From: Wenzhouxiangella sp. XN201
GTDB taxonomy: Bacteria; Pseudomonadota; Gammaproteobacteria; Xanthomonadales; Wenzhouxiangellaceae
Length of the DNA: 64,000 bases
Assembly (NCBI RefSeq): GCF_011008905.1
Contig: NZ_JAAIVI010000022.1
Coordinates: 1-64,000, forward strand
Reading direction: 5' to 3'
The position numbers and the translations under genes are program-made. The notes under the pieces were generated by a model. That model ran no database searches. It was not told the DNA's origin and worked only from the letters and a program-made list of their open reading frames with translations. Shown here piece by piece: positions 9,618 to 43,395 of the stretch (position 1 is the stretch's first letter; every line of letters starts with the position of its first letter).

Positions 9618-9630
9618 AGTGAAACCACAG

Positions 9631-9698
9631 TGTTAAGTGTCAAGTGTGAAGTGTAAAGAAAATCGCAACTCTCCACTTCACACTTCACACTTCACACT
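9631..9698. repeat. Inverted array of 7-nt repeats (island A)
   Basis: Left arm 9631-9658 reads NAAGTGT three times; right arm 9671-9698 is its inverse (CACTTCA units). The spacer is 12 nt, so a long hairpin could form. The right arm runs into the aminotransferase gene and supplies its last codons and stop. One of five such islands in this window (see 12423, 19273, 38949, 43233). Confidence 0.85.
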
Positions 9699-10793
9699 CT
9701 TGAGCCCATCCGAAACGCGCTCGATCTGTTCTTCCGTCATTTCCGGGAAGATCGGCACAGAGAGGCAGCGTTCGGCAACGGCCTCGCTATTGCCCAGGTC
9801 ACCGGCCTGGCGGCACTGCGCGAAGGCCGGCTGTCGATGCAAGGGGATCGGATAGTAGACGGCGCTGGCGATATCGTTTTCGCGCAGACTGGCTTGCAGG
9901 TGCTCACGCAAACCGTCAGGCACCAGCAGGGTGAACTGGTGGTAGACATGGCGACCGATGTGGTCTTCGTACGGCAATTCGAAGTCCGCAGTCTCAAGAC
10001 AACGCCGATAGCCGGCCGCCACGCGCCTGCGCTCGCGATTGAAGTCGTCAATGTAGCCCAGCTTGACCCGCAGGATGGCCGCCTGCAGCTCATCGAGGCG
10101 GCTGTTGTAGCCGATCACTTCATGCTCGTAGCCGTCGACACGGCGGCCATGGTTGCGCAGCATGCGAATCTCTTCGGCCAGTGCATCGTCGCTGGTAGCG
10201 ATCAGTCCGCCGTCACCGCAGCCGCCGAGGTTCTTGCTGGGGAAAAAGCTGAACGCGCCGGCCAGCCCGATCGACCCGGTCTGGCGGCCTTCGATCTCGG
10301 CGCCGAAGCTCTGTGCGCAGTCCTCGATCACCTTCAGGCCGTGACGGTCTGCGAGTGCCATCAGAGCAGTCATGTCGGCCGGCTGTCCGAACAGGTGGAC
10401 CGGCAGAATGGCGCGAGTTCGTTCATTCACTGCTGCTTCGACCCGCTCGGGATCGATGTTGAAGCTGCGCGGATCGATATCGACGAACACCGGCTCGGCG
10501 CCGCAGTAGCGAATGGCCTCGGCCGTCGCGATGAACGTGAATGGCGTGGTGATGACCTCATCGCCGGGACCGATTCCGGCGGCCCGCAGGGCCAGGTGCA
10601 AGGCATCGGTACCGGAAGCACAGCCGATCGCGTGCGAAACACCGAGATACCCGGCCAGTTCGTTCTCGAGAGCCTGCACTTCGGGGCCCAGGATGTAGCG
10701 GGTGCCGGCCATGACGCCGGAGATGGCCGCATCCAATTCAGATTTCAGGTGCTCATACTGAACACCCAGGTCGACCATGGGGATCGGATTCAT
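9678..10793 (-). CDS. DegT/DnrJ/EryC1-family sugar aminotransferase
   Basis: A 371-residue PLP enzyme that aminates a keto-sugar nucleotide. Visible motifs: GCASGTDALHLAL (phosphate site), D158 in EDCAQSFGA, and the PLP lysine K187 in FPSKNLGGCGDGG. Coupled by an ATGA overlap to the upstream Gfo/Idh oxidoreductase; such pairs make 3-amino sugars (WbpB/WbpE in O-antigen, GnnA/GnnB for 2,3-diaminoglucose in lipid A). The lone pair without other O-antigen genes fits GnnA/GnnB slightly better, but this is inference. The start is the ATG at 10793; the upstream in-frame extension lies inside the partner gene. Odd point: the last six residues (SVKCEV) and the stop come from the repeat array at 9671-9698. 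Confidence 0.88.
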   Translation of the reverse strand: MNPIPMVDLGVQYEHLKSELDAAISGVMAGTRYILGPEVQALENELAGYLGVSHAIGCASGTDALHLALRAAGIGPGDEVITTPFTFIATAEAIRYCGAEPVFVDIDPRSFNIDPERVEAAVNERTRAILPVHLFGQPADMTALMALADRHGLKVIEDCAQSFGAEIEGRQTGSIGLAGAFSFFPSKNLGGCGDGGLIATSDDALAEEIRMLRNHGRRVDGYEHEVIGYNSRLDELQAAILRVKLGYIDDFNRERRRVAAGYRRCLETADFELPYEDHIGRHVYHQFTLLVPDGLREHLQASLRENDIASAVYYPIPLHRQPAFAQCRQAGDLGNSEAVAERCLSVPIFPEMTEEQIERVSDGLKSVKCEV

Positions 10794-11755
10794 GCCGAGC
10801 GGGCATGCCCGGTCGAAGGGGCTGATTCGACCAGGGCGCTGATGCGCATGGCGGTTTCGAGTGCCAGCAGTCCGTCCTCGCCGGTAACCACCACCGGCGT
10901 GCCGTCGCGCAGGGCCGACAGGAAGGACTCGATCTCGCATTTGAGCGGATCGTTATTCTCGAAAGACGATTCCTCGCGCAGGATTTCCGGCACGCCGGGA
11001 AACATCTCCCGATCGCCGATGCGATGAATGGCCAGTCCGCAGTTCTGGAAATCGACCGAGATATAGGCCTCTGGCTGGAAGATACGCATGCGCCGCTCAG
11101 ACTTCACGCTGACCCGGCTGGATGTGACATTGGCTACGCAGCCGTTTTCGAACTCAAGCCGCGCATTGACGATATCGATATCGTCGGAAAGTACCGGCGT
11201 ACCGTTGGCCGCCAGCGAGCGCACCGGGCTCTTGACCATACCGAGAATCAGGTCGATGTCGTGAATCATCAAATCCAGCACCACGCTGACATCGGTGCCG
11301 CGCGGCTTGAAGGGGGCAACCCGATGCGATTCGATGAACAGGGGATTGAGTTCGAAACCGCCGAGATTGGCAAAAGCGGCGTTGAAACGCTCGAGATGAC
11401 CGATCTGGAACACCACGCCGCGCTCACGCGCCAACCGGGTCAATGTCCGGGCTTCGTCGAGTGTGCTGGCAATGGGTTTTTCCAGCAGGACGTGGACGCC
11501 GGCATCGAGGAAATCGCGGGCGATGTCGAAGTGCCGCACGGTTGGCACGGCTATCGAGACGGCATCCACCTGGCCGATCACATCACGATAATCAGTAACG
11601 GCACGGCAGCCGCAGTCCTGGGCCGACTGGCGGGCAGCCTGCTCGTCGATGTCGACCACAGCCACCAGTTCGGCGCCGGGAAGTTCGGCATACTTGCGGG
11701 CGTGGAAACGGCCCAGATAGCCCACGCCGATCACGGCGCATTGAGTCAGTTGCAT
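10790..11755 (-). CDS. Gfo/Idh/MocA-family sugar oxidoreductase
   Basis: A 321-residue NAD(P)-dependent oxidoreductase. The Rossmann motif GVGYLGRFHARKY lies at 10-22 and the family EKP signature at E92-K93-P94 (LLEKPIAS). The C-terminal domain has IHDIDLIL with the likely catalytic His. Start taken as ATG 11755, which puts the Rossmann fold at the usual distance from the N terminus. It would oxidise a UDP-sugar at C3 to the keto form used by the downstream aminotransferase, with which it overlaps by 4 nt (inference). Confidence 0.88.
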   Translation of the reverse strand: MQLTQCAVIGVGYLGRFHARKYAELPGAELVAVVDIDEQAARQSAQDCGCRAVTDYRDVIGQVDAVSIAVPTVRHFDIARDFLDAGVHVLLEKPIASTLDEARTLTRLARERGVVFQIGHLERFNAAFANLGGFELNPLFIESHRVAPFKPRGTDVSVVLDLMIHDIDLILGMVKSPVRSLAANGTPVLSDDIDIVNARLEFENGCVANVTSSRVSVKSERRMRIFQPEAYISVDFQNCGLAIHRIGDREMFPGVPEILREESSFENNDPLKCEIESFLSALRDGTPVVVTGEDGLLALETAMRISALVESAPSTGHARSA

Positions 11756-12422: not shown

Positions 12423-12578
12423 TCACGCCATGGCGCAAAGGCGCCAAGAACGCAAAGGAACTGCAACTAATGCACCCACGCTTTCCTGGAGGCTCAACTT
12501 CGCCGTGCTCGGCACGACCCGGAACAATTCGATTTTCTTTCCTCTTGGCGATCTTCGCGCCTTAGCGCCTTGGCGTGA
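12423..12578. repeat. Inverted array of 8-9-nt repeats (island B)
   Basis: Left arm 12423-12458 and right arm 12541-12578 are inverted copies built on CGCnAAGG units (TCACGCCA.GGCGC.AAGGCGC...). They flank about 80 nt of unrelated sequence. It lies between the 3' end of alaS and the interrupted tRNA-Ser. No gene is seen in it. Confidence 0.8.
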
Positions 12579-15282: not shown

Positions 15283-15549
15283 TACTAATGAGGCCGCTAA
15301 TCAGCAGACATTCAGCTTGTCTCTCAGCATCCGTGGCAAGGCGTCGGGGCGCCGGTGTAGCAAAGTCTACATCAAGCGCCGAGAACGCAGTCCACGGACG
15401 CTGAGAGACAAGCCCTGCGGGAGATTCGGAGACGGCCACCGGCTGCGTTCCGCTCGCTTGAAATAGTCTGGCTATGTCTGCACTCACGCGCCTTGCCGGA
15501 GGCCGTCTCCGAAACTCTGAATGTCTGCTGATTAGCGACCTCATTAGTA
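15283..15549. repeat. Composite palindrome I: outer 33-bp inverted repeat enclosing two long hairpins
   Basis: Outer arms 15283-15315 and 15517-15549 pair over 33 bp with one mismatch. Inside lie two independent hairpins. Hairpin 1 has arms 15315-15336 and 15392-15413 (22 bp, one mismatch). Hairpin 2 has arms 15421-15443 and 15495-15517 (23 bp, two mismatches). The two cores are inverted relatives of each other: GGCAAGGCG ... TAGC-N-A ... TCAAGCG ... GAACGCAG. The strand could fold into a three-way junction. No protein-coding gene is supported here. Confidence 0.85.
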
Positions 15550-15604
15550 AGGCCTGCAGGGGCAAGGGGAAACGCGCCCGCGACCCAAGTCGACGATTCA
15601 CTAA

Positions 15605-15672
15605 GCCGGCGGGGTGTGTTTCGTGCGCGATTTCGGGTAACCGTATGAGCGCATGAAACACACCCCGCCGGC
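15605..15672. repeat. Long hairpin with conserved loop (copy 1)
   Basis: Arms GCCGGCGGGGTGTGTTTC (15605-15622) and its exact complement (15655-15672) form a perfect 18-bp stem, extended by TGCGC/GCGCA after a one-base break. The 20-nt loop (15629-15648) begins GATTTCG and ends CGTATGA, as in the hairpin at 15753-15832, while the stems are unrelated. Confidence 0.85.
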
Positions 15673-15752
15673 GTCCCGCTACGAACGAATCTTTGTGCAC
15701 GTTGATCGGCGAAGAAAGAGTGCTAGCGTCGACGGTGAGGCTCGCGGCGGGA

Positions 15753-15832
15753 TCCAGTGCCGGGTTGGGGCCTTCAACTCGCGATTTCGAGGGATCGTAT
15801 GAGCGAGTTGAAGGCCCCAACCCGGCACTGGA
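15753..15832. repeat. Perfect 30-bp hairpin with conserved loop (copy 2)
   Basis: Arms 15753-15782 and 15803-15832 are exact reverse complements over 30 bp. The 20-nt loop (15783-15802) is GATTTCGAGGGATCGTATGA, matching the loop of the hairpin at 15605-15672 in 16 of 20 positions. It ends 15 bp before the recX stop codon, so it might also act as a transcription barrier. Confidence 0.88.
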
Positions 15833-15847
15833 TTGCATTGAGTGCGA

Positions 15848-19272: not shown

Positions 19273-19509
19273 GAAACCGCAGATTGCGCAGATTAACGCA
19301 GATTGATCAAAACAGAATCGTCAGTTTGCACAACTGGTTCCAACCGCAGATCAGGCAGGATCAACGTGCGACAAGACTTGGCTTGCCAATACTCCTGCTG
19401 TGCTGTGCCCGTCTGTTTGTAGTCCTCAATATAGTCCAGAAGCTGTGCTCATCTGTGAAACCTGTGGACACAAACCTCATCTGCGTTAATCTGCGCAATC
19501 TGCGGTTTC
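19273..19509. repeat. Perfect 31-bp inverted array of CGCAGATT repeats (island C)
   Basis: Arms 19273-19303 and 19479-19509 are exact reverse complements (GAAACCGCAGATTGCGCAGA... with CGCAGATT units every 9-10 nt). About 175 nt lie between them, with degenerate internal copies (AACCGCAGAT near 19350, CATCTGTG near 19450). It fills the spacer between pncC and mutS, ending 19 bp before the mutS start, so it lies in the mutS leader. Confidence 0.9.
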
Positions 19510-38910: not shown

Positions 38911-38948
38911 GTCGTCATTCTATCAGGCAGGGTGGGCAAAAACCTTTG

Positions 38949-39120
38949 AAACGCAAAGACGCAAAGCAGCAAAGAACGCTAAGAAAGAAAAGCAATAAGG
39001 CAGGTAACCACGGAAGTTACTGAGAGGCTGGAGTTAACCCAGTTCACTCTTTAGTTGGCCTATTTTCCTTCAACTTTTTGATTTTCTTTGCGTCCTTTGC
39101 TGCTTTGCGTCTTTGCGTTT
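38949..39120. repeat. Inverted array of GCAAAG repeats (island D)
   Basis: Arms 38949-38986 and 39083-39120 are reverse complements in 36 of 38 positions (AAACGCAAAGACGCAAAGCA...). Short extensions also pair (ACCTTTGAA on the left, GGTTTTCAAAG on the right). The 96-nt middle shows no gene. It fills the spacer between the Zur-like gene and the 3' end of gltX. Confidence 0.88.
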
Positions 39121-39153
39121 ATAAGGTTTTCAAAGGGCTATAGCCCCCCAATC

Positions 39154-40744: not shown

Positions 40745-42214
40745 GTGACCGGCACCGAACCACAATCGGGGGGCTGGCGCGCGGGCCTGGCGCTCCGCCT
40801 TCGCGCCCTGCTGCGCTGGCTGGTTCTGGCGGCGGTGATCGCGATGATCGCGATTTCGGGGGATGACCGACTGACCCAGGTCGAGCGCATCGAGGCGCGC
40901 GGCAGCCTCGTCATGCTGACGGTCAACGGCGCGTCCACCTACTATCTGGGCCCGGAAGGCGAAACCGGCTACGAGTACAGGCTCGCGCAGCGCTTTGCCC
41001 GCTATCTTGGCGTTCCGCTACAGGTCGTGACCGTCGACAGCGTCGGCAACCTGATTCCCGAGCTGCTGGCCGGAAACGGCGATTTCGTAGCCGCCAACCT
41101 GACCCGAACACCGAACCGCCAGCGTGAATTGCGCTTCGGCCCGGCCTACGAGTTCGTTGTACCCACCGTGGTCTACCGCCGCGGCTCACCCCGCCCCCGC
41201 TCGATCGAGGACCTGGCAGACGGCAGGCTGGGCCTGATCGACGGTACGGTATACGAGTCCCTGCTCGCCGACAGTGAGGTCCGGATCGAGCCGGACATAC
41301 GCCCGGAAGCCAGCATCGAGGACCTGTTCGAAGCGATCACCAACGAGGAAATCGACTACACCATCATCGATTCGAACATCCTGGAACTGAATCGGCGCTT
41401 CTTTCCCGCCATTCGACCGGCCTTCGAGCTGGGCGAACCCCAACCGCTGGCCTGGGCCACGCGCCGCTCCAACGATGACTCGCTAGTTCAGCTCATGCGC
41501 GAGTTCTTCCTGGTGGCCGGGGAACGAGAGGTGCTGGCCGAACTACGCCAGCAGTATTACGGCCACATCGACAATTACGAACCCGTCGGTACCTTCACGT
41601 TCATGCGCCAGATCCGCGAGCGCCTGCCCGCGCTGCGTGCCTATTTCGAGCAGGCCGCCGAACGCTACGATCTGGACTGGCGCCTGCTCGCCGCGGTCGG
41701 CTACCAGGAGTCGCACTGGAACCCGGCGGCGGTATCACACACCGGAGTTCGCGGCATCATGATGCTGACGCGCCGCACCGCCGGCCAGCTCGGGATCGAA
41801 AATCGCATCGACCCGCAGCAGAGCATCATGGGCGGTGCCCGTTACCTCAAGTCCATGATCGAGCGTATCCCCGAACGGATCGAAAACCCGGATCGTCTGT
41901 GGCTCGCCCTGGCGGCCTACAACATCGGTTACGGACACCTGGAGGATGCCCGCGTCATCACCCAGCGCCGCGGCGGCGACCCGGACCGCTGGGTGGACGT
42001 GCGCGAGAACCTGCCGCTGCTCACCCAGGAGCGTTGGTACAGCCAGACACGCTTCGGCTACGCCCGAGGTTACGAGCCGGTGCAGTACGTGGAGAATGTG
42101 CGTACCTTCTTCGAGATTCTGACCTGGCTCGAGGGCCGTGAGCACCCCGCACTGGTCTCGAGTGATTCGGATTCACCGGACAGTGAAGGCGAGGACACCG
42201 AGCCGGATAATTAA
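40745..42214 (+). CDS. mltF: Membrane-bound lytic murein transglycosylase F
   Basis: About 489 residues. A membrane anchor (about 25-40; [19 protein letters not shown]) is followed by a solute-binding-like domain (about 50-285; [20 protein letters not shown]) and a C-terminal SLT catalytic domain (about 300-460) with the catalytic Glu in [23 protein letters not shown] and [14 protein letters not shown]. No in-frame ATG lies near the expected N terminus; I chose GTG 40745. The TAA stop lies inside the outer arm of composite palindrome II. Confidence 0.9.
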
Positions 42215-42490
42215 GGAGCCTTTGAACAACTCTGCACGGAGCGCGTTTTGACGGAGAAGCCGCAGATCGTGTGGTGCGGCGCGAGTGACAGTAGCCGTAG
42301 CTACGGCCGAGTGGCGCAACGCGCGAGATGCGGCTTCTCCGTCAAAACCCTTCGGGACGGGCCTTTGCGGGGTCTCCGATCCGTTTCGGCTCACTCATTT
42401 GGAATGACCAAACCACGCTCGCCGAAGCCGGAACGGAGCCTCCCGCAAAGACCCGTCGCGCCCGCGCAGAGTTGTTCAGAGGCTCCTTAA
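42211..42490. repeat. Composite palindrome II: outer 25-bp inverted repeat enclosing two long hairpins
   Basis: Outer arms 42211-42235 and 42466-42490 pair over 25 bp with one mismatch. Hairpin 1 has a perfect 20-bp stem (42245-42264 with 42329-42348). Hairpin 2 has a stem of about 23 bp with a few differences (42356-42378 with 42434-42457). Cores: GGCGCGAGTG ... GTAGC/GCTAC ... GAGTGGCGCAACGC in hairpin 1, and a related inverted form with TTTGG/CCAAA in hairpin 2. The plan is the same as at 15283-15549, with unrelated stems. The whole mltF-dnaQ spacer is taken up by it. Confidence 0.85.
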
Positions 42491-43232: not shown

Positions 43233-43395
43233 TGTCCACAGATGAACACAGATATACACAGATAAAGAATCTAAAAACAGGTCATTACGATTCTTGATGG
43301 GCAAGTTTCGAAATCAAACCATCGGTCAACGAACACAGCGATGAATTGTCTTTCTGTTTCTTAAATCTGTGTTCATCTGTGTTCATCTGTGGACA
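43233..43395. repeat. Inverted array of CACAGATGAA repeats (island E)
   Basis: Arms 43233-43263 and 43365-43395 are reverse complements in 29 of 31 positions (TGTCCACAGATGAACACAGA...), built on a 10-nt unit. About 100 nt lie between. It fills the rnhA-dnaQ spacer, 17 bp upstream of the dnaQ start and 10 bp from the rnhA stop. Confidence 0.88.

What the first reader, a model, noticed from the sequence alone, without database searches (positions are those of the whole stretch)
38949..39120. Five intergenic islands with the same plan: paired inverted arrays of 7-10-nt repeats, each with its own unit
Islands at 9631-9698 (NAAGTGT), 12423-12578 (CGCNAAGG), 19273-19509 (CGCAGATTnn), 38949-39120 (GCAAAGnC) and 43233-43395 (CACAGATGAA) each have two inverted arrays flanking 12-175 nt. 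Arms are 27-38 nt and often near perfect, while units differ between islands. From memory, similar A/G-rich arrays occur in unrelated environmental bacteria, but I know of no accepted function or mobilising enzyme. Design constant, sequence variable: a possible undescribed small element class.
Basis: partly seen in the sequence, partly recalled or inferred. Interest (0 to 1): 0.85.

Follow-up and report, generated by a model that had tools for sequence, protein, structure and literature searches.

The report
Gene-less inverted-array mobile elements
The five odd repeat islands look like gene-less copies of small mobile DNA elements whose full versions carry, between the same inverted repeat arrays, one tiny gene for a nuclease-like or a four-helix-bundle protein, and a known insert in ribosomal RNA genes appears to belong to the same kind.

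Summary
In detail: all five islands are paired inverted arrays, far beyond chance. They look like gene-less members of two linked element classes. Class A: GxxExxY genes (PF13366/TIGR04256, Cas4-like PD-(D/E)xK fold) lie between inverted arrays of 8-10-nt units: 12 of 12 genus loci, 56 of 79 loci from many phyla, 25 of 29 further loci. Shifted placements gave 0 of 274 and 0 of 114; 9 of 432 ORFs in array-rich stretches pass, one being a GxxExxY gene. Class B: four-helix-bundle 'IVP' genes (PF05635) lie between arrays of mostly 7-nt units (18 of 30; 22 of 28). Each window island's unit occurs around such a gene in this genus. A class-B element with heptamer arms sits inside 23S rRNA genes of another family, and a congeneric genome lacks it there, so at least this rRNA intervening sequence belongs here. 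Islands come, go and change type between species at one spacer, and one inverted. No target duplication, Y1 transposase or coding-strand RNA-pairing signal was found. Mobility is inferred; nuclease-driven movement is a hypothesis.

The parts
9629..9653 (+). I1 left array, AAGTGTN units (class B, 7 nt)
   Evidence: same unit flanks IVP genes L318 and L321
9674..9698 (-). I1 right array, inverted
12423..12459 (+). I2 left array, CGCNAAGG-type units (class A, 8 nt)
   Evidence: read from sequence; arms most like those of GxxExxY elements L053 and L054 among 13 compared
12537..12578 (-). I2 right array, inverted
   Evidence: read from sequence
19273..19303 (+). I3 left array, CGCAGATTNN units (class A, 10 nt)
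   Evidence: matches arms of GxxExxY element L047
19479..19509 (-). I3 right array, 31 of 31 complementary
38939..38986 (+). I4 left terminal sequence: AAAACCTTT end plus four GCAAAG-type units (class A, 8 nt)
   Evidence: matches arms of GxxExxY elements L052 and L055
38987..39082 (.). I4 interior, no gene remnant; homologous to the G011 interior only as reverse complement
   Evidence: alignment score 56 inverted, 9.5 direct, 300 shuffles at most 12.5
39083..39130 (-). I4 right terminal sequence, inverted
43233..43263 (+). I5 left array, CACAGATGAA units (class A, 10 nt)
   Evidence: matches arms of GxxExxY elements L046 and L056 (truncated gene)
43365..43395 (-). I5 right array, inverted

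Best explanation
The islands are non-autonomous copies of small DNA elements that have multi-site terminal inverted repeats and no transposase gene between them. A full class A element is about 430-510 bp in the five intact genus cases measured: an inverted terminal repeat made of a few short units, one small gene, and the repeat again. SHOWN: GxxExxY genes sit between 8-10-nt-unit arrays and IVP genes between mostly 7-nt-unit arrays; the units of all five islands match gene-bearing elements of the genus; arrays and gene co-occur across genomes; gene and unit type go together; element ends are fixed in sequence and register at dispersed loci (38949 type); sites are filled, short or differently occupied between species; one such element lies in 23S rRNA genes with an element-free counterpart in the same genus. 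INFERRED: the encoded protein recognises the units as repeated binding sites on DNA and acts in trans on gene-less copies; the PD-(D/E)xK protein nicks or cuts at the arrays or their extruded hairpins, and replication or recombination repair copies the element into hairpin-like or intergenic targets, often replacing local sequence, hence no target duplication seen and the one inversion. For class B the four-helix-bundle protein would be a nucleic-acid-binding partner using a host nuclease. Rough odds: element and derivative relationship 0.85; protein acts on the arrays 0.6; this repair-based mechanism 0.35.
For: Inverted arrays flank GxxExxY genes at 12 of 12 genus loci, 56 of 79 genome-contig loci (0 of 274 shifted controls) and 25 of 29 further loci (0 of 114). 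They flank IVP genes at 18 of 30 (0 of 116) and 22 of 28 (1 of 101). Gene-boundary control: 9 of 432 ORFs in array-rich stretches reach the cut-off, one of them the GxxExxY gene itself. Unit length separates the classes: best period 8-10 in 57 of 64 class A elements with arms at the cut-off, best period 7 in 16 of 18 such class B loci. Co-occurrence: array pattern in 25 and gene in 37 of 299 genomes, both in 21 (Fisher p 1.4e-18; within family f44 p 7e-5). Protein identity and arm similarity correlate (76 elements, rho 0.31, 0 of 2000 permutations; 10 genus elements, rho 0.57, 16 of 5000). Nine 38949-type islands at seven loci in three species share a register-locked terminal sequence of up to 46 nt. 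D70, E80 and K82 are kept in 87 of 87 proteins without internal stops (2 of 89 dropped); confident model (pLDDT 94.8) nearest Cas4 and lambda-exonuclease-like nucleases. Element-free and filled 23S rRNA sites with 99-100% identical flanks. Site turnover.
Against: No movement was observed and no target duplication resolved. Gene-less interiors carry no recognisable GxxExxY remnant (five window islands, nine other islands and one inter-island stretch; the only hit was an 11-residue match in that stretch), so simple internal deletion is not shown. Four of 25 array-bearing genomes lack the gene. With one query each, GxxExxY is rare on plasmids (8 of 72,556 records) and was not found in phages (0 of 50,697), unusual for an aggressive mobile element. 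The protein-unit correlation can arise from gene and arms being inherited together, without recognition. Below the arm cut-off fall 23 of 79 and 4 of 29 GxxExxY genes and 12 of 30 and 6 of 28 IVP genes. The nearest solved folds are distant (one match with E below 0.001, TM-scores at most 0.57). No biochemical evidence exists here that GxxExxY cuts anything.
Confidence: 0.65

Rival explanations
1. Homing-parasite model: the arrays spread or are maintained by something else, and GxxExxY and IVP genes are passengers or homing endonuclease-like parasites that settle inside arrays they recognise.
For: Gene-less islands far outnumber genes: about 15 islands (one with a gene) in 164 contiguous kb against 5 GxxExxY matches, one truncated, and 1 IVP gene in the whole genome. 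Of 30 places found by array pattern alone, 12 had a strict inward partner, and none of these 12 interiors (20-160 nt) held an ORF of 70 aa. Two unrelated gene families share one plan. Island interiors have no gene remnants. Four of 25 array genomes lack the gene.
Against: Arrays and gene co-occur tightly (21 of 25); unit length is specific to the gene family; no other enzyme was found linked, though only Y1 transposase was searched in the genome.
Confidence: 0.2
2. RNA-level model: the islands act, or move, as long RNA hairpins (RNase III sites, terminators, or RNA copied back into DNA), as rRNA intervening sequences are cut out of rRNA.
For: Very stable folds (I4 minus strand -90.8 kcal/mol, z -10.2; I3 -107.8, z -7.8). 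One class-B element lies in 23S rRNA. Published IVS are cut by RNase III (PMC4990558, passages read).
Against: Arm mismatches on the coding strand are not biased to G.U over A.C: 157 to 137 in class A (p 0.27) and 29 to 45 in class B (p 0.08); with the strictest arm cut-off class B leans the other way, 11 to 31 (p 0.003), which would fit pairing on the opposite strand or composition, not the gene's RNA. I3 lies between divergent genes. No Rfam family at the islands.
Confidence: 0.12
3. In-place origin: the islands are slippage- and template-switch-made quasi-palindromes that never move.
For: Array parts of the arms within an island are more alike than between islands (0.912 vs 0.861; 51 of 10,000 permutations reach it), as template switching would give, though the outer 12 nt are not (0.750 vs 0.756); some class-B arrays are long simple tandem runs (G035).
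Against: The same terminal sequence in fixed register, including distinct AAAACCTTT and AAAATCTTT ends in 7 of 9 islands, at dispersed loci and in three species; specific genes inside.
Confidence: 0.03

Closest known systems
REPIN / REP elements with RAYT (TnpA-REP)
   Same: Two short inverted repeats around a spacer, hairpin-forming, intergenic, widely repeated, with an associated single-gene enzyme thought to serve non-autonomous copies (PMC3116915 and PMC8266576, abstracts read).
   Different: No Y1/HUH transposase in this genome. Repeats are multi-unit arrays of 7-10 nt, not single palindromic REPs, and the linked proteins are a PD-(D/E)xK-fold protein or a four-helix-bundle protein.
23S rRNA intervening sequences (IVS) with S23/IVP gene
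   Same: A PF05635 gene between inverted repeats; class B shares this plan, and an IVS in G222 has heptamer arms of the type found intergenically in the same genome.
   Different: The window islands lie in intergenic spacers and carry no gene. Of 60 other IVP loci scanned, none overlaps rRNA. Class A carries another gene family.
MITEs of DDE transposons
   Same: Short, gene-less, terminal inverted repeats, dispersed intergenic copies.
   Different: No target duplication resolved; the gene-bearing elements seen carry GxxExxY or IVP. DDE transposases were not searched.
Homing endonuclease genes and Cas4/lambda-exonuclease-like nucleases
   Same: GxxExxY model nearest Cas4 SSO0001 (4ic1, E 6e-4), LHK-Exo (3syy), Cas4 Pcal_0546 (4r5q) and lambda exonuclease; weak match to the homing endonuclease domain I-Bth0305I (E 0.21).
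   Different: Smaller (about 128 aa) and encoded between inverted arrays; partner genes were not searched.
Heptamer repeats of cyanobacteria (STRR) and TAACTGA repeats of Beggiatoaceae
   Same: Short-unit tandem repeats in intergenic DNA (STRR recalled; Beggiatoaceae paper PMC4679880 seen in search listing only).
   Different: By the listing the latter are almost all direct repeats, with no paired inverted arms and no linked gene mentioned.

Membership tests
REPIN/RAYT | cognate Y1/HUH transposase (PF01797) in the genome | tested here: not met
   0 matches in G000 (97.9% complete); the same search found it in 5 of 14 control genomes
REPIN/RAYT | paired inverted short repeats around a spacer, many intergenic copies | tested here: met
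MITE of a DDE transposon | target-site duplication | tested here: inconclusive
   no clean duplication in the filled/empty pairs, but intergenic divergence is high; the rRNA site shows replacement of 15 nt instead
MITE of a DDE transposon | parent element with a transposase sharing the terminal repeats | tested here: inconclusive
   the gene-bearing elements examined were found through GxxExxY and IVP; copies carrying a DDE transposase were not searched for
23S rRNA intervening sequence | located inside an rRNA gene | tested here: not met
   no rRNA in the window
23S rRNA intervening sequence | S23/IVP gene between inverted repeats | tested here: not met
   no gene in any of the five islands; the gene-bearing counterparts of I1 have one (L318, L321), those of I2-I5 have GxxExxY instead
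GxxExxY / PD-(D/E)xK nuclease (partner protein) | D, ExK and QxxxY motif residues | tested here: met
   D70, E80, K82 in 87 of 87, Q94 in 86, Y98 in 83; nuclease activity itself not testable here
CRISPR array | identical direct repeats with unique spacers beside cas genes | tested here: not met
   units are 7-10 nt, in inverted pairs; cas genes were not searched

The most novel reading that the evidence does not exclude
A separate order of mobile DNA spread through bacterial and archaeal phyla: elements with inverted arrays of short protein-binding units, moved by a minimal Cas4-like PD-(D/E)xK nuclease (class A) or with a four-helix-bundle protein (class B), with no transposase, recombinase or reverse transcriptase of their own. 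The 23S rRNA intervening sequences would be its only previously recognised members, and the many gene-less copies per genome its miniature form.
Probability: 0.45. Interest if true: 0.93.

Novelty: categorically new. Interest (0 to 1): 0.88.

Why it matters
Two widespread but unexplained small gene families (GxxExxY and 'four helix bundle protein') get a shared genomic context and a testable role. Origin and mobility of 23S rRNA intervening sequences, described as still unclear in PMC4990558 (passages), become directly testable: the rRNA copies look like rare landings of an element class that mostly sits elsewhere. If the nuclease moves the islands, it would be a DNA mobility system with a very small enzyme and simple, swappable recognition units. 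It also warns annotators that such arrays can resemble CRISPR arrays: a figure legend of a CRISPR discovery paper lists '23S rRNA IVP' (PMC10910872, one passage seen), possibly for that reason (inference).

Tried and rejected
REPIN/RAYT in trans: rejected, no Y1 transposase found in the genome. Selection for pairing of the gene's RNA: tested by G.U against A.C mismatches, no signal for it. Decayed GxxExxY inside gene-less islands: none found; IVP remnants were not tested. Target duplication: looked for at the dnaQ/rnhA spacer, in filled/empty pairs from synteny and by eye in aligned outer ends; nothing consistent. A candidate GTT/CCGTT repeat at the dnaQ/rnhA site (G010 vs G033) did not recur. 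Recent gene-bearing duplicates: the two identical IVP copies of G222 proved to lie in a 5.9-kb identical rRNA operon repeat, which gave the rRNA link instead; the G035 copies shared no element-wide duplicate and two G087 copies only 72% over about 300 nt. Defence system: only a weak PADLOC hit (RTasPDDEXK, E 1.7e-4, 1 of 5 proteins). Phage origin: no PHROGs hit for 5 proteins, no phage record with one query. VIA-align library was not available. Papers: 'GxxExxY' occurs in one paper of the library, in a gene table of an algal virus; six Pfam/TIGR names of the two families occur in three papers; the other searches listed none that by title or abstract start describes this class. The library lacks most subscription journals and preprints, so absence from print is not proven.

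Full report
OBSERVATION. The five islands were read directly and confirmed as inverted repeats built of short units. In the whole window, inverted pairs of 20 nt or more with a 12-nt seed were found at four of the five (all but the less perfect 12423 island) and at some unrelated places; five Markov-shuffled windows gave none. Island by island, 0 of 300 shuffles reached the observed score. Neighbouring genes by Pfam: I1 between an aldolase-family and a DegT-family gene; I2 beside an alanyl-tRNA synthetase-like gene; I3 between a CinA-domain gene and mutS; I4 between a class I tRNA synthetase gene (E/Q type) and a FUR-family gene; I5 between an exonuclease-domain gene and RNase H.

THE SAME SPACERS IN RELATIVES. 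The window is contig C22:1-64000 of a 3.13-Mb genome, G000. At the I4 spacer, of 14 genomes extracted, four (G000, G011, G003, G010) have the GCAAAG-unit island, G006 and G012 carry arrays of other units, G009 another repeat, four have 33-57 nt with no array (G001, G002, G005, G007), and three from other families have 73-103 nt. G010 carries a second inverted array nested inside. The I4 interior of G000 matches that of G011 only as reverse complement (score 56 against 9.5 direct, 300 shuffles at most 12.5); this is the one inversion seen. At the I5 spacer, of 26 spacers extracted from 27 loci (two from G010), by eye 11 hold array units of several types and 15 are 20-73 nt without one; at the I3 spacer, of 18 extracted from 24 loci, the unit types again differ (G000, G011 and G003 all differ) and five are only 36-60 nt. 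So the arms are not conserved regulatory DNA; islands come, go, nest and are replaced by other types at the same place.

GENE-BEARING COUNTERPARTS, CLASS A. From memory I suspected GxxExxY and four-helix-bundle genes, and tested both. Of 15 genomes (own, nine of the genus, five of the order), 6 have PF13366 matches, 12 in all, all in the genus. All 12 lie between inverted arrays, two of them around truncated genes (L050, L056), and the arms match window islands: L047 with I3, L046 and L056 with I5, L052 and L055 with I4, L053 and L054 with I2. The three proteins scanned are NCBIfam TIGR04256 and Pfam PDDEXK_3. With a local alignment of the two flanks, 56 of 79 (one dropped at a contig edge) reach score 14, against 0 of 274 placements shifted within the same loci; at 12 it is 69 against 3. 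A second set, the 29 new loci returned out of 65 matches in 299 genomes of the phylum, gives 25 of 29 against 0 of 114 (at 12: 27 against 1). The shifted controls often fall inside genes, so I also tested ORF boundaries in array-rich stretches of three species: 9 of 432 reach the cut-off, one being the GxxExxY gene itself; by their array-like arms five of the other eight appear to be ordinary ORFs lying between two separate islands.

CLASS B. Four-helix-bundle IVP genes (PF05635, TIGR02436) occur in 52 of 299 phylum genomes. Of the 30 loci returned and examined, 18 lie between inverted arrays (0 of 116 controls; at 12: 20 against 4), and in 16 of the 18 the best period is 7. In the genus, 22 of 28 (1 of 101 controls), including L318 and L321 with AAGTGTG arms, the unit of I1. 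In class A the best period is 8-10 in 57 of 64. Unit length thus follows the gene family. Misses are real: 23 of 79, 4 of 29, 12 of 30 and 6 of 28 fall below the cut-off, and a few IVP arms are not heptameric.

LINKAGE. In the same 299 genomes, a three-unit CGCARAG pattern is found in 25 (the reversed control pattern in 1), the GxxExxY gene in 37, both in 21. Fisher p is 1.4e-18 overall and 7e-5 within family f44, where 17 of 22 gene-bearing and 2 of 17 gene-free genomes have arrays; genomes are related and a few gene matches are partial, so these are guides. Protein identity and arm similarity correlate: for instance CGCAGATGAA units go with similar proteins in G000 and G002, while G000 itself holds several proteins with different units. 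Inheritance as one unit explains this; it does not prove recognition.

ENDS. Nine GCAAAG-type islands at seven loci in three species share up to 46 nt in one register (about 38 in the G003 copy at the I4 site), with AAAACCTTT at one end and AAAATCTTT at the other in 7 of 9, allowing small variants. Array parts within an island agree better than between islands (0.912 against 0.861; 51 of 10,000 permutations); the outer 12 nt do not (0.750 against 0.756). So these are dispersed elements with defined ends, not freely expanding arrays.

THE PROTEIN. The predicted structure of the L055 protein is confident (pLDDT 94.8); nearest solved folds are Cas4 and lambda-exonuclease-like nucleases, at a distance (best E 6e-4, TM-scores up to 0.57); a sequence search of the PDB gave no meaningful relative (two chance-level serpin hits). 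D70, E80 and K82 are kept in 87 of 87 proteins, Q94 in 86 and Y98 in 83; two sequences with internal stops were left out, and the fetching pattern covered only residues 24-33. IVP resembles the DGR protein Avd (PMC10053308, passages); a relative forms an assembly of five four-helix bundles (title in that paper's reference list).

THE rRNA LINK. Two identical IVP genes of G222 lie in 23S rRNA genes within a 5.9-kb identical repeat (Rfam was run on one copy). The arms there are heptamers of GGAATCA type on both sides, and G222 (two places read) and a related genome (L342) have short intergenic islands of the same unit. G356, of the same genus, has the same rRNA site without the element, flanks 99 and 100% identical: a 15-nt perfect hairpin tip stands where G222 has the element. 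The position fits helix 45 (recalled). None of 60 other IVP loci scanned overlaps rRNA, nor do 20 GxxExxY loci. PMC4990558 (passages) says functionality and origin of these sequences remain unclear, and that mobility was proposed long ago.

MECHANISM. Two islands were folded and form very stable hairpins, but arm mismatches show no excess of G.U on the coding strand (157 to 137 in class A; 29 to 45 in class B, and 11 to 31 at the strictest cut-off, which leans the other way). This favours a role of the arms as DNA, or at least not as pairing arms of the gene's own RNA. There is no Y1 transposase match in the genome, and with one query each plasmids (8 of 72,556) and phages (0 of 50,697) hardly carry GxxExxY. 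I therefore favour nuclease-started copying or recombination at arrays, acting on gene-less copies in trans. That step is inference; the homing-parasite reading is the main rival.

LIMITS. No two strains of one species could be compared, target duplications stay unresolved, other mobility enzymes were not searched in the genome, and nothing was tested at the bench. The open-access library searched shows no description of this class, but most subscription journals and all preprints are missing.

Noticed in passing
window 15283-15833: 551 bp with several nested inverted repeats of 22-33 nt and no array plan; the syntenic site of G011 has 30 nt there. Looks like another, separate inverted-repeat element.
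   Followed up: partly
window 42211-42490: 280-bp element with inverted ends AAGGAGCCT(T/C)TGAA; related-looking ends at G000 C17:441629-441774 and 442654-442863, perhaps a second hairpin-element family in this genome.
   Followed up: partly
L022 (G009) and L145 (G034) spacers: A third repeat type, GTAGGTCGGGGCTACGTCCCCGACGG-like, occupies the I4 and I3 spacers in these relatives.
   Followed up: no
G000 C17:479765-480622 (L016): Two GCAAAG islands flank an ordinary ORF in inverted orientation, a composite-transposon-like arrangement; arms of L082 and L139 look like island-gene-island layouts.
   Followed up: partly
L053 protein: Weak match to a reverse-transcriptase-associated PDDEXK defence model in PADLOC (E 1.7e-4).
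   Followed up: no
window 9678-9698: The right arm of I1 appears to supply the last codons and stop of the DegT-family ORF (9678-10940, minus strand).
   Followed up: no
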